DNA of 64,000 bases, taken from contig LFKV01000007.1 of assembly GCA_001189345.1 (NCBI GenBank), positions 1 through 64,000 on the forward strand, given 5' to 3'. The notes beneath the pieces are model-generated. The model saw nothing but the letters and a program-made list of their open reading frames with translations, searched no databases and had not been told where the DNA came from. This DNA comes from Candidatus Paraburkholderia kirkii (lineage in GTDB: Bacteria; Pseudomonadota; Gammaproteobacteria; Burkholderiales; Burkholderiaceae). The translations under genes were made by a program, and so were the position numbers. Positions 1-64,000 of this stretch are shown piece after piece; position 1 is the first letter of the stretch; each line of letters opens with the position of its first letter.

Positions 1-126
1 TGCATGGTGGGCGATGCATCGACCGCGCGACGATGCATCCATGGTCCTGACCTGCATCGCGCGTTCGCCAAGGAAGTCCTTCCCCTTAGCATCTTACCGA
101 TGCCGAAGGCGAGCCGTTCTGCACGC
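1..126. other. Left edge of window, unassigned
   Basis: No complete gene is visible. The minus strand stays open for roughly 40 codons, so this may be the end of a gene cut by the window edge and by the neighbouring insertion sequence. I do not recognise the product. It does not look like the missing tnpC of the adjacent IS66 remnant. Confidence 0.3.
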
Positions 127-189
127 TGGGCCGTCCCCCGCAAAAGCCGGACAGCGGTGACGCTTAAATTTTGAGGTAGTCTTCTGCCT

Positions 190-1440
190 ATGTTTAAGCC
201 TAGTCACAACGTGGAACCTCTAGAAGTTCTGACCCAGCCGGAGCAGCGCCGCCGGCGTTCGGTTAAAGAGAAACTAGCGATAGTTCGCGAGACTTTCGAG
301 CCCGGTGCAACGGTCTCTGGCGTCGCTCGCCGACATCAAGTGAATGCCAACCAAGTCTTCGGCTGGCGCAAGCTCTATCAGGACGAGAGCCTATCGGTGG
401 TCTGCCGGCGAGCACGTGGTGCCGGCATCTGACCTAGCCGAAGCAATGAAGCAGATTCGCGAGCTGCAGCGATTGCTAGGAAAGAAGACAATGGAGGTAG
501 AAATCCTCCGTGAAGCAGTGGAGTATGGTCGAACAAAAAAATTGACTGCGCTCACCATTGCTGCCGGGGGACGACCGTTGAAGACGGTCTGTGAAGTCCT
601 GGGGGTGTCGCGCTCGAATCTCGCAGTCAAGTCGAAGCGGCCGGCTGACTGGGTCGACCGGCGCAAGATGCCCGTGCTCGACGACACGGCGCTTGTCGCC
701 GAACTTCATGAGTTGTTAGGCGACGCGCCGACGTATGGATACCGAGGTGCTTGGGCGTTGCTGAGGCGAAGCCGGGACATGCTGGCTCAACCGCGAGTAA
801 ATGCAAAGCGCGTGTATCGCGTGATGCGTCGCCACGGCCTGCTGCTTGAACATCGCCCTCGGCACGCCTCGTCTACGCGTCGGCATGACGGCAAGGTCGC
901 GGTGGATAGCAGCAACATGCGCTGGTGCTCGGATGGCTTCGAATTCCGCTGCGATGCCGGTGTCCCATTGCGTGTCGTCTTCGCACTCGACTGTTGCGAC
1001 CGCGAAGCCATGAGTTGGGCCGCGAGCACAGGCGGTTACACTGGCGATATGGTGCGTGACGTCATGCTTCAAGCCGTCGAGAACCGCTTCACCGGCGCGT
1101 TGAAGGCCGAAAGGGAAGTCGAGTGGTTAAGCGACGATGGTTCCTGCTACATTGCCGATGACACATTGAAGTTCTCTCGAAAAATCGGACTGAAGCCAGT
1201 AACGACACCCGTCAGAAGTCCGCAAGCAACGGGATGGCCGAGAGCTTCGTTAAAACGATAAAGCGTGATTACGAAACGATAAAGCGTGATTACGTTTCGT
1301 GGATGCCGAAACCCGACGCCAGGACGGCGCTGCAAAATCTGGCCATCGCGTTCGACCACGATAACGAGTCACACCCGCATAGCGCCCTTAAATACCGCTC
1401 GCCGCGCGAGTTTCGTCGGCAAGCAAATCCTCCAACCTAA
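190..1440 (+). pseudogene. IS2-group transposase, copy 1 (frameshifted)
   Basis: The first part (190-432) is the OrfA helix-turn-helix region, with RRRRS, GVARRHQV and NQVFGWRKLY. It ends in an early stop. The leucine-zipper part (EAMKQIRELQRLLGKKTMEVE) and the integrase core continue in another frame from about 400. This split is shared by all three copies. Copy 1 alone also lacks one A near 1224, so the frame is lost just after VRSPQ and the catalytic Glu segment AESFVKT falls in a third frame ending at 1440. The second catalytic Asp (WLSDDGSCY) is present here. Copy 1 therefore cannot make a complete DDE enzyme without correction. Confidence 0.85.
1253..1294. repeat. 21-bp perfect tandem duplication inside the IS transposase
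   Basis: Two identical 21-bp units (1253-1273 and 1274-1294) insert seven residues, ETIKRDY, after KTIKRDY near the catalytic Glu. The same duplication is present in copies 2 and 3. IS2 itself has a single KTIKRDY followed by MPKPD. The insertion is in frame and must predate the spread of the element. Confidence 0.85.
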
Positions 1441-1485
1441 GCGGGACCGGCTGTCCGGTTATGCGGGGGCAAGTCCACGGCATCG

Positions 1486-1881
1486 TCATTTCTGCCGCGA
1501 CATTCTCAACTTGATTGTCGCGCGTCTCTCATCCGGATTGTCGCGCCACAGGCGTGCTGCCTCGATCGGTTCGCGCCAGTCAAACCCTTCGAGAAGCAGC
1601 GCCAGTTGAGCCGTTGTCAGCGCCACAACACCAGTGTCAGCACGTGGCCATGCAAAACGTCCTTTCTCAAGGCGCTTTGCAAACGGACATAGGCCGCCAT
1701 CGCTCCAGTACAACGCCTTCATAAGGTCACCACGGCGCCCTCTGAAGATAAAAACCTGGCCACCGTACGGATCCTTCTCAAGCACTGTCTGCACCTTCGC
1801 TGCAAGCGCATTAAAGCCGGATCACATGTCAGTGACGCCTGCGGCGATCCAGATCCGCGTATTTGCAGGCAGGCCGATCAT
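1486..1881 (-). pseudogene. IS66 TnpB (Orf2 family), nonsense mutation
   Basis: IS66 elements carry a small accessory protein TnpB of about 115-130 residues. The start MIGLPANTRIWIAAGVTDM is followed by an in-frame TGA where an Arg codon (CGA) is expected, and the frame then resumes with SGFNALAAKVQTV. Conserved features follow: FRGRRGDL, LCPFAKRLEKGRF and QLALLLEGFDWR. The start overlaps the tnpA stop as TGATG, the usual translational coupling in this family. The nonsense codon leaves a peptide of about 19 residues. Confidence 0.85.
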
Positions 1882-2297
1882 CAGAGAAGCCGCTCGAGTA
1901 CCAGGCGCAAGATCGTCGCGTCGGGCGTGCCTTCTATCCGGACGGAAGTATTGCCGTGCTGAAGCTCAATCCTGCCGCTCGTAGTAACTGGAGCGGCCTG
2001 CACAACTTCGTCGAATCCGGCAGATGGTCAGTTGCCCGATCGGGCTGAACATCGACAACAACAGGCAACATGGCCTGCGTCTGAGCATCTTCGACCAGCA
2101 GGCCCTGCGCGTACAGTTTGCGCCACGCCCATACCTGGTTGACCGCTGCCCAGCGTCAGGCGCAGGTCGCGGGCGACCCGAGCGACCGAGGCTCCTGGTT
2201 CAAATGTCTGCTCGACGACCGTTCGTTTCCATTCCAACGGATGCCGCCGGTTCTGGCGCTTGGCCGGCAATTCGACTGTCTGAGACACTGTGTCCAT
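1881..2297 (-). pseudogene. IS66 TnpA (Orf1, HTH), frameshifted
   Basis: This is the small helix-turn-helix accessory protein of IS66 elements. MDTVSQTVELPAKRQNRR, EQTFEPGASVARVARD and, in a second frame, NQVWAWRKLY-like and LVLERLL segments are visible. The frame is lost after VARD, so only about half is readable from the start codon. The stop TGA overlaps the tnpB ATG. An upstream in-frame ATG at 2327 exists, but the family start fits 2297 better. Confidence 0.75.
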
Positions 2298-62273: not shown

Positions 62274-63086
62274 GTTGTCTCCTCACTTCTCTCGCAACCA
62301 CAGGTCGGGAAGAGGTCCGGTCGCATCGTCGATGTCGGTCGATTGTTTCGAGCGCCGGCCTGTTTGTGCTTCGTTCTTTTTTGCTTCGTTCTGTTTCGCT
62401 GGTCTTCACGGCGCCGGCATGCGCCTCCGGTTATTCGCGTGTCTCGTTCCGCGTGGGTCCTCGTTGCTTCTGGAAGCTGAAAAATAGCTAACGGAGTTAT
62501 CGGATGTCAAGCAAATCACGCCCCGCCGGCGTGTTACCGAAACGCCCGAAACGCGTTTTTTCCTTCTGCTGATCGCGAGTTGCAGGTTGTTCTCGGGATA
62601 TACCCCGAGCGCGTGTTACCTCCCTCTTTTACCCGCTTTTAACTGGAGTTTCCACGCGTTTTCCTGCGGTTTTCCCTGCGTGCTGCGGGACGGGCGAATA
62701 GCCCGCGCGTTGCACTTTCGATGGCGGTCCGCGCCTCGGTGACGGAAAATTCAGGAGGGCAGGATCGGACCAATGCTGGCAAGGTTCGAAAGCGGCTCGG
62801 CGCGCTTTACTTCGTCCGCCTGACCTTACCTCTTGCCGCAGTCGAGTTCGATTGGGGGTCGCGCACGTTCAAAATGCCGCGCTTTCCGCCAACATGCCAG
62901 ACAACTCGCCGGTCAAATGGTCCGTGAGCGTTGCTCCACAATCATGACGGAATCGCGAAATCTCGCTGATTCGCCGGGAATTGTGAATGACAGTAGTCAC
63001 AATTTTGTCAAACAACTTTACAGTAATGGAAAAGACCGGCATGCAAAGAGCCGAGGTTGTGTGACAACTGCCTCGCACAGACGCGC
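62274..63086. other. 813-bp region without a supported gene
   Basis: It lies between the binding-protein gene and the GntR regulator, both on the minus strand. It should contain the importer promoter near 62280-62500. A partial tandem repeat of TGCTTCGTTCT is at about 62367-62392. The stretch 62990-63060 is AT-richer than the surroundings. Open frames on the plus strand (for example around 62721-63213) lack coding character. It may be the remains of a deleted gene. Confidence 0.5.
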
Positions 63087-63914
63087 TCAATCCCCGAACA
63101 TGCGTTCGAGCGCGTTCTCGAGATGCGCATTCATCGCCCGCCCGGCGCGCGCGGGGTCCTTCGCCCTGATGGCTTCGAGCACTTCGAGATGCTCCCGCTG
63201 CACGAGCCGTTGACGCTCCTTCACGAGCGACAGACTGCGCGATAGGTTCATGCTGAACACGACCTGCTCCTCGATGGACGACAGCATCGTGACGAAGAAC
63301 TGATTCCTGGAGGCCCGCGCCACGGCGAGATGGAAGGCGAAATCGTCCTGCGCGCCGATGCCCTGCTGCGCCTCGACAATGCGCTCCAGTCGATCCCAGG
63401 CGTCCTGAATCGCGGGAATGTCTTCTTCCTCGGCCTTGACGGCCGCGAGTTCTGCCGCACCCGATTCCATGATCACGCGAAATTCATAGCAACGGCGAAT
63501 GTCAGACAGCGTTTCGAGCGGAGCGAAGCGGCGCACGTCCGGATCGGGCCGGCGCCCGACGATCGTGCCCGAGCCGCGCCGCGTTACGATGATGCCGTCG
63601 GCGCGCAGACGCGCGAGCGCCTCGCGCACGGTCGGCCGCAAGGTGGCAAAGTGTTCGGCGAGCGCGTGCTCCGTCAGGAGCCGCTCGCCCTCCTTGAACT
63701 CGCCTTCGACGATGCTGTTGAGGATGTCGCTGTAGATCCGGTCGGCGAGGCCGGATGCCTTACGCTCGTTTATGTTCGCGCGGGACGTGCCTGTCGGGGA
63801 GGAGAACGATTGTAAGGCAGATTCTTGCCGGCAAGACAAGTGCGGCAACGGTGGTCTTACGAATGCAAAATGCCGCATGCAACTTGCCGGCAGTGCGTAA
63901 ATGTGGAAAGGCAA
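63087..63914 (-). CDS. GntR/FadR family transcriptional regulator
   Basis: An intact regulator with an N-terminal winged HTH (SGLADRIYSDILNSIVEGEF, LTEHALAEHFATLRPTVREA, LARLRADGIIVTRRGSGTIV) and a C-terminal FCD ligand domain (RRCYEFRVIMESGAAELAAV, DDFAFHLAVARASRNQFFVT, QREHLEVLEAIRAKDPARAG). The HTH reads FATLRPTV where FGVSRPTV is common. The true start is uncertain; the first conserved residues begin about 50 codons after ATG 63914. Upstream of the dead importer, which it probably regulated. Confidence 0.85.
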   Translation of the reverse strand: MPFHIYALPASCMRHFAFVRPPLPHLSCRQESALQSFSSPTGTSRANINERKASGLADRIYSDILNSIVEGEFKEGERLLTEHALAEHFATLRPTVREALARLRADGIIVTRRGSGTIVGRRPDPDVRRFAPLETLSDIRRCYEFRVIMESGAAELAAVKAEEEDIPAIQDAWDRLERIVEAQQGIGAQDDFAFHLAVARASRNQFFVTMLSSIEEQVVFSMNLSRSLSLVKERQRLVQREHLEVLEAIRAKDPARAGRAMNAHLENALERMFGD

Positions 63915-63939
63915 GAAAAAGGCGCGCCGCGGCGCGCCC
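63914..63939 (-). terminator. Terminator of the gene at the right edge
   Basis: On the minus strand GGCGCGCC-GC-GGCGCGCC (63921-63938) is followed by a T-run (A at 63916-63920). It lies 21 bases after the stop codon of the gene entering from the right edge. Confidence 0.75.
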
Positions 63940-63959
63940 TTCGACCAGACTGCCGGCCC

Positions 63960-64000
63960 CTACAGCGAAAGCAGCTTGCGCGCCTCCTTCGCGGTCACCA
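63960..64000 (-). CDS. Partial gene, C terminus only
   Basis: The last twelve residues VTAKEARKLLSL and a TAG stop (63960-63962) are visible, followed by a good terminator. The gene continues beyond the window. The product cannot be assigned from so short a segment. Confidence 0.6.
   Translation of the reverse strand, partial: VTAKEARKLLSL

What the first reader, a model, noticed from the sequence alone, without database searches (positions are those of the whole stretch)
1..64000. Mosaic of clean core genes and heavily broken accessory genes points to a genome in reductive decay
Seen: over 30 genes show frameshifts, in-frame stops, internal deletions or IS truncation, often several per gene (AsmA-like, PgeF, M20 peptidase, penicillin acylase, ABC importer), while rimO, rluD, bamD, the DinG-like helicase, mprF, metC, phaA and acvB are clean over long frames. 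Inference: lesions follow gene function, not position, as in host-restricted Burkholderia/Caballeronia such as leaf-nodule symbionts. This window would then show an intermediate stage of reduction.
Basis: partly seen in the sequence, partly recalled or inferred. Interest (0 to 1): 0.8.

Follow-up and report, generated by a model that had tools for sequence, protein, structure and literature searches.

The report
Recently eroded Caballeronia leaf-symbiont genome
This stretch comes from a bacterium, probably a plant leaf symbiont, whose genome is half the size of its closest soil relative's and is full of freshly broken genes beside intact housekeeping genes, a known kind of symbiont decay seen here at a young stage.

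Summary
Of 49 genes compared with the nearest relative, 24 are broken, 6 have terminal lesions and 19 keep an open frame; six more are missing at one IS copy. The same caller finds 59 lesions in 27 of 47 window genes, against 2, 0, 0 and 9 in four relatives. Assembly error is unlikely: 12 of 12 fully covered genes in the rpoB stretch of the same assembly are intact, and only 3 of 24 isolated 1-bp indels lie in runs of four or more. The genome is 3.91 Mb. In a seven-gene tree its sister is the soil species C. ptereochthonis (about 7.7 Mb; dS 0.17), apart from six other reduced Caballeronia genomes. It carries two cyclitol-type loci, one about 94-96% identical to loci of two other reduced genomes. 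Best reading: a young, separately derived leaf symbiont. 'Lesions follow function' holds only in part: open genes also evolve under relaxed selection, and retention matches other reduced genomes on the chromosome-1 segment but not on the second-replicon segment. A new member of a known kind.

The parts
135..1477 (+). IS copy near the contig's left end (99% identical to the copy at 9832-11184)
   Evidence: transposase domains
2399..4204 (-). AsmA-family gene, broken: 4 frameshift clusters in its first 1.5 kb, 3' end missing
4349..5072 (+). FetA-like ABC ATPase, terminal lesion (frameshifting insertion)
5129..5874 (+). FetB-like permease, broken (3 frameshift clusters)
5885..6257 (-). Gene of the 3-demethylubiquinone methyltransferase domain family, terminal lesion
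6400..6841 (-). Glyoxalase-family gene, broken
7023..8960 (-). Hybrid histidine kinase, intact; also intact in 6 of 6 other reduced genomes
9047..9521 (-). Response regulator, broken here, intact in 6 of 6 other reduced genomes
9517..9831 (-). Bacteriophytochrome-like kinase, truncated at the IS
9832..11184 (-). Full-length IS (1353 bp, 19-bp inverted repeats, rve + HTH_21 transposase); about 10 kb present in G001 and G043, with LigD and Ku, is missing here
11234..12073 (+). serB, intact
12130..13329 (-). metC-type cystathionine beta-lyase, intact
14094..15281 (-). bktB, broken (2 frameshift clusters)
15336..16229 (-). PfkB-family kinase, open frame with 30-bp in-frame deletion
16233..17570 (-). 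rimO, open frame but canonical start codon lost
18308..18868 (-). phaR, broken
19012..19734 (-). phaB-type acetoacetyl-CoA reductase, broken (2 frameshift clusters)
19855..21036 (-). phaA-type acetyl-CoA acetyltransferase, open here; broken in 6 of 6 other reduced genomes
21117..23121 (-). phaC (PHB synthase), broken (frameshift + stop); intact in 0 of 6 other reduced genomes
23439..24264 (-). pgeF, 3 frameshift clusters (classed terminal by ORF coverage)
24251..25274 (-). rluD, intact apart from the C-terminus
25630..26433 (+). bamD, intact
26514..28589 (-). YoaA/DinG-type helicase, intact
30248..31068 (+). tex, truncated at an IS
31069..32299 (-). IS copy lacking about 120 bp at one end; joins sequence collinear with two different contigs (replicons) of G001
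32303..32506 (-). ECF sigma factor, truncated
32845..33212 (-). SCO0930-like lipoprotein, broken
33433..34416 (-). AraC-type regulator, broken
34645..35700 (+). Aldo/keto reductase, intact
35888..37069 (+). pobA-type monooxygenase, open frame but start codon lost
37131..38736 (-). Glycogen-debranching-like enzyme, broken, N-terminal part lost
39031..39825 (+). TauE/SafE-family exporter, intact
40084..41741 (+). Acid phosphatase, 3 frameshift clusters + 54-bp deletion (classed terminal by ORF coverage)
41769..42153 (-). Rid-family gene, broken (N-terminal part)
43114..43988 (+). NAD-dependent epimerase/reductase-like gene, broken
44047..45154 (-). Malate/lactate dehydrogenase, broken (3 frameshift clusters + stop)
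45346..46792 (-). Dipeptidase-like (M20-type) peptidase, broken (3 frameshift clusters + stop)
46889..49333 (-). Penicillin amidase, broken (4 frameshift clusters)
50506..51728 (-). AcvB/VirJ-family gene, intact
51803..54253 (-). mprF, open frame with 30-bp in-frame deletion near the N-terminus
55835..56543 (-). NarL-like response regulator, broken
57310..58062 (-). Aldose-epimerase-like gene: open, 27-bp deletion, lineage dN/dS 1.63 (14 N, 3 S changes)
58282..62273 (-). ABC importer (two permeases, ATPase, binding protein): all four genes broken
63087..63773 (-). GntR/FCD regulator, open frame but start codon lost

Best explanation
The window is part of a real, partly eroded genome of a host-restricted Caballeronia, most likely a leaf symbiont of a cyclitol-producing kind, whose ancestor was a soil bacterium close to C. 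ptereochthonis. Shown: the genome is half the size of that of its sister; one IS occupies at least 40 places; one IS copy sits where about 10 kb is missing; small insertions, deletions and stops broke about half of the window's scored genes; dN/dS is raised on broken and open genes alike; the fully covered genes around rpoB are intact; two cyclitol-type loci sit on a lower-GC contig. Inferred: small, vertically passed populations let drift fix the lesions; at least one cyclitol locus arrived by transfer from other leaf symbionts; host restriction followed. The stage is intermediate: many pseudogenes still recognisable, no GC drop yet.
For: Genome 3.91 Mb at 97.3% completeness against about 7.7 Mb in the sister (PMC4896955 passages). 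Lesion counts with relatives as controls. rpoB stretch 12 of 12 intact against 9 broken, 1 partial and 8 intact of 18 in a second-replicon stretch of the same assembly. Faster lineage: 951 substitutions against 457 on the sister branch; odds of nonsynonymous change 3.9-fold higher in broken and 2.0-fold in open genes. IS in at least 40 places (my count from a truncated listing). Sister to C. ptereochthonis with support 1.000, and split from six other reduced genomes with support 1.000. Two sugar-phosphate cyclases best matched by PDB 4p53 with aminotransferase, GT20-family, dehydrogenase and HAD neighbours. One locus is 94.5-96% identical in DNA over 2.1 kb to G063 and G038, while window DNA is 77-84% identical to G038 over pieces longer than 2.5 kb. 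PMC8599487 (passages) ties such synthases to leaf-nodule Burkholderia.
Against: No sample origin, host, reads or culture data were available. Cyclitol production is inferred from gene families; 4p53 is only labelled 'Cyclase', and its identity as a valiolone synthase is recalled. The genome does not fall in the clade of the six other reduced genomes tested. GC has not dropped (0.663 against 0.664). Retention does not match other reduced genomes on the second-replicon segment. The rpoB stretch also carries an IS fragment, at which about 5.5 kb of G001 is not matched, so it is not untouched. The second cyclitol locus is only 87-89% identical to those of G029 and G038, no strong sign of recent transfer.
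Confidence: 0.83

Rival explanations
1. Most frameshifts are sequencing or assembly indels.
For: No reads could be mapped; several contigs begin or end in IS copies, so the assembly is imperfect at repeats.
Against: 12 of 12 fully covered genes (5,219 codons) of the rpoB stretch intact where about 20 lesions would be expected at 1.27 per kb. Of 66 isolated indels 24 are 1 bp and 3 of these lie in runs of 4 or more; 5 of 10 insertions of 4 bp or more are exact tandem duplications. Lesions cluster in some genes. dN/dS is raised, which indels cannot cause.
Confidence: 0.03
2. Decay is blind: genes still open in this window are simply not yet hit, and function hardly matters here.
For: dN/dS on this branch nearly equal in open and broken genes (p = 0.22). 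phaA is open while phaC, phaB and phaR are broken. Three open genes have lost their start codon. No parallel retention on the second-replicon segment.
Against: Lesion-free DNA exceeds uniform expectation (0 of 20,000), although extra hits in already dead genes would add to this. rpoB-stretch genes intact. On the chromosome-1 segment retention matches other reduced genomes (p = 0.0095). rluD, bamD, the YoaA helicase and the hybrid kinase are intact in all seven reduced genomes scored.
Confidence: 0.3
3. Host-restricted but in another host (insect gut, fungus, nematode), not a leaf.
For: Caballeronia also lives in bugs (papers listed); the lesion pattern itself does not name the host.
Against: Two cyclitol-type loci shared with other reduced Caballeronia; such genes are described as exclusive to leaf-nodule Burkholderia (PMC8599487 passages).
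Confidence: 0.1

Closest known systems
Candidatus Caballeronia (Burkholderia) kirkii and related Psychotria leaf-nodule symbionts
   Same: Genus, massive genome erosion, valiolone-synthase-type cyclitol genes on a separate element (PMC8599487 passages).
   Different: The six other reduced genomes tested (their names are not given by the tool, so whether kirkii is among them is unknown) form a separate group; this lineage is sister to a soil species. Host and nodulation unknown.
Non-nodulated Caballeronia endophytes of Empogona and Tricalysia (PMC10405798, passages)
   Same: Filtered assemblies of 3.76 and 3.92 Mb for two of four hosts; placed at different points within Caballeronia, one with C. 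fortuita and C. novacaledonica.
   Different: None is reported there next to C. ptereochthonis (that word does not occur in the main text).
Burkholderia Lv-StB of Lagria beetles (PMC7042692, passages)
   Same: About 45% of ORFs pseudogenes, 159 transposase ORFs, recent horizontal transfers.
   Different: Insect host, GC already lowered, genome about 2 Mb, dS 0.55 to its free-living relative.

Membership tests
Caballeronia leaf symbionts | Belongs to Caballeronia | tested here: met
   Same genus as 57 other genomes; nearest named relatives Caballeronia; tree
Caballeronia leaf symbionts | Reduced, eroded genome with pseudogenes | tested here: met
   IS expansion
Caballeronia leaf symbionts | Cyclitol (valiolone-synthase-type) biosynthetic loci | tested here: met
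   Two loci on contig C43. Of unreduced genomes only two (G043, G042) were checked for absence. Among nine other reduced or small genomes' searches, extra copies appeared in G029, G038 and G063 only. Product not shown.
Caballeronia leaf symbionts | Lies in the clade of other reduced Caballeronia genomes | tested here: not met
   Split with support 1.000. Probably not defining: leaf endophytes lie at several points in the genus (PMC10405798 passages).
Caballeronia leaf symbionts | Lives in leaves, vertical transmission | not testable with these tools
   No metadata for the genome
Caballeronia leaf symbionts | Not cultivable outside the host | not testable with these tools
   No culture data

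The most novel reading that the evidence does not exclude
A soil Caballeronia close to C. ptereochthonis became a leaf symbiont recently and on its own, after receiving cyclitol genes horizontally from existing leaf symbionts, and has since lost half its genome within a synonymous distance of 0.17. That would be a separate origin of leaf symbiosis caught with a cultivable sister species, testing whether acquisition of the cyclitol genes starts the path to erosion.
Probability: 0.5. Interest if true: 0.72.

Novelty: new member of a known kind. Interest (0 to 1): 0.5.

Why it matters
Early genome reduction is often inferred from old symbionts. Here broken genes can be aligned base by base to a close soil relative, so rates, order and selection can be measured. 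Six other reduced genomes of the same genus give comparisons: PHB synthase (phaC) is not intact in any of the seven, while rluD, bamD and the YoaA helicase are intact in all seven.

Tried and rejected
Artefact reading: rejected from indel spectrum, rpoB-stretch control and relatives. AT-biased mutation as a sign of advanced decay: not found; GC>AT per GC site over AT>GC per AT site is about 1.2 on both branches (computed from the counts). Parallel retention across all genes: p = 0.066; pooling terminal with open genes gave 0.038; the replicon split was made after seeing the data. Replicon fusion at 31069-32299: left open, because the junction lies in a repeat and reads are not available. tRNA and Rfam scans of the window: nothing at their thresholds.

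G001-based frameshift counts contain alignment noise in IS-truncated genes and were replaced by counts against G043, or against G001 for phaA where G043 has a contig gap. In the lesion counts two IS-truncated genes were left out (47 of 49), and AsmA and tex were counted only over 1,500 and 800 bp. In the dN/dS totals genes referenced to G001 were left out, and codons near gaps were masked. In one search, 4 of 16 and 3 of 21 reference genes at the edges of the fetched or aligned stretches were left out. In the tree, G063 was dropped for too little sequence, and reduced genomes G033 and G003 were not included.
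Full report
What was checked. The window is G000:C7:1-64000 of a 3,914,712-base genome in 48 contigs, 97.3% complete. A rimO scan of named genomes (best 80 kept of 259) gave Caballeronia species as nearest relatives (the tool may leave out the genome itself).

Structure. Against G001 (7.0 Mb) the window is collinear from 2399 to 9831 and from 11193 to 31068 with its contig C1, and from 32303 to 63830 with its contig C4, apart from short unmatched gaps. An IS of 1353 bp with 19-bp inverted repeats fills 9832-11184; about 10 kb present in G001 and in G043 is missing there. 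A second copy at 31069-32299, shorter at one end, marks the switch between G001 contigs. Whether that switch is a real rearrangement or a join across a repeat is undecided. By my count from a truncated listing the IS occupies at least 40 places in the genome; in that listing, of the four relatives searched, only G006 shows a copy above 80% identity.

Lesions. Genes were called in G001 by the codon-position pattern of differences to relatives. In the window 24 of 49 genes are broken, 6 have terminal lesions and 19 are open. In G001 and G011 all 49 are open; G043 has one cut by a contig gap, G006 one cut by a contig end, and G012 five with shorter matches (0.85-0.97). Lesions are diverse: 66 isolated indels, 30 insertions and 36 deletions, 24 of them 1 bp; 123 bp gained and 402 bp lost. 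Five of 10 insertions of at least 4 bp are exact tandem duplications. Three open genes have lost their start codon; for two of them other possible in-frame starts lie nearby.

Artefact control. In a 20-kb stretch around rpoB from the same assembly, 12 of 12 fully covered genes are intact; in a 20-kb stretch matching the second replicon, 9 are broken, 1 partial and 8 intact of 18. At the window's 1.27 lesions per kb about 20 would be expected in the 5,219 codons of the 12 genes. The rpoB stretch is not free of change: an IS fragment lies in it, and about 5.5 kb of G001 between the two matched pieces is not matched.

Selection. Substitutions were assigned to branches by parsimony with at least two agreeing outgroups. 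The window's lineage has dN/dS 0.32 in broken, 0.31 in terminal and 0.27 in open genes; the G043 branch has 0.08, 0.21 and 0.13. Broken against open on the window branch: p = 0.22. Window against sister branch: p about 1e-13 (broken) and 3e-4 (open). So relaxation is general, and openness of a gene in this window is weak evidence of need. Base composition has not shifted.

Function or chance. Lesion-free DNA is in excess of a uniform model, which both selection and repeated hits in dead genes would give. In six other reduced genomes of the genus (draft assemblies, so some partial genes are contig cuts) the hybrid kinase, rluD, bamD and the YoaA helicase are intact in 6 of 6, and phaC and phaA in 0 of 6. 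The link between openness here and retention there is p = 0.0095 on the chromosome-1 segment, 0.79 on the second-replicon segment and 0.066 overall; the split was made after seeing the data. A counterexample is the response regulator at 9047-9521, broken here but intact in 6 of 6; rimO, open here, is intact in only 2 of 6.

Relationships. In a FastTree of seven genes and 23 taxa with missing data, the window's genome is sister to G043 (support 1.000; pairwise dS 0.169), next to G001 and other unreduced Caballeronia. Six reduced genomes (G027, G029, G038, G044, G057, G058) plus the Tricalysia hensii endophyte are split from all other taxa with support 1.000; some deeper nodes have low support. 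With the insect-symbiont rates quoted in PMC7042692 (passages) a dS of 0.169 would mean roughly 2-15 million years since the split from C. ptereochthonis, an upper bound on the age of decay and only a rough one.

Lifestyle. The genome holds four DHQ-synthase-family genes. Two on contig C43 (GC 0.55-0.59) match PDB 4p53 best. Ten neighbouring ORFs scanned include GT20, class-III and DegT aminotransferase, nucleotidyltransferase, dehydrogenase, MFS and HAD families; a ROK-like kinase beside one synthase is named from recall. One locus is 94.5-96% identical in DNA over 2.1 kb to G063 and G038 (with a 0.3-kb upstream piece at 86.6% in G063 and 95.4% in G038); the other is 87-89% identical to G029 and G038. 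Window DNA is 77-84% identical to G038 over pieces longer than 2.5 kb. G043 and G042 show no such extra genes. Passages of PMC8599487 describe valiolone synthase on plasmid pKIR01 and its restriction to leaf-nodule Burkholderia. Hence a leaf symbiont is the most likely identity, and transfer of one cyclitol locus is likely; for the other it is open.

Literature. Genome erosion in these symbionts is in print (PMC8599487, passages; Carlier & Eberl 2012, Pinto-Carbo 2016 and Danneels 2023 only as citations, not read). PMC4896955 was seen as passages and section 17; PMC10405798, PMC10689751, PMC12411853 and PMC7042692 as passages. In the held library one search for ptereochthonis + symbiont + Caballeronia found two papers, neither about a leaf symbiont of this lineage as far as titles, abstract starts and passages of PMC4896955 show. 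That does not show that this lineage is undescribed.

Noticed in passing
window 2140-5561 and L176 (G000:C13:1-3422, reverse): The two stretches are 100% identical, then diverge at window 2140; the left end of the contig may be an alternative arrangement, a duplicate or an assembly overlap.
   Followed up: partly
L162 (G000:C41), L165 (G000:C5): One DHQ-synthase copy, whose region is 94.7% identical to the G043 AroB locus, has an open frame of only 189 aa against 367; a second copy on C5 (375 aa) is open. Aromatic synthesis may rest on the second copy.
   Followed up: partly
L179, L180 (G000:C43): Two cyclitol-type biosynthetic loci on a low-GC contig with at least five copies of the IS; one locus nearly identical to loci in two other reduced genomes.
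   Followed up: partly
window 21117-23121 and relatives: PHB synthase broken here and intact in 0 of 6 other reduced Caballeronia, while intact in five larger relatives: convergent loss.
   Followed up: partly
window 9047-9521: Response regulator next to the intact hybrid kinase is broken here but intact in all six other reduced genomes.
   Followed up: no
G000:C5:87392-89455: IS fragments of both orientations lie side by side (listing).
   Followed up: no
L174 2176-3330 (G000:C1): An IS fragment lies where about 5.5 kb of G001 is not matched, beside the rpoB region.
   Followed up: no
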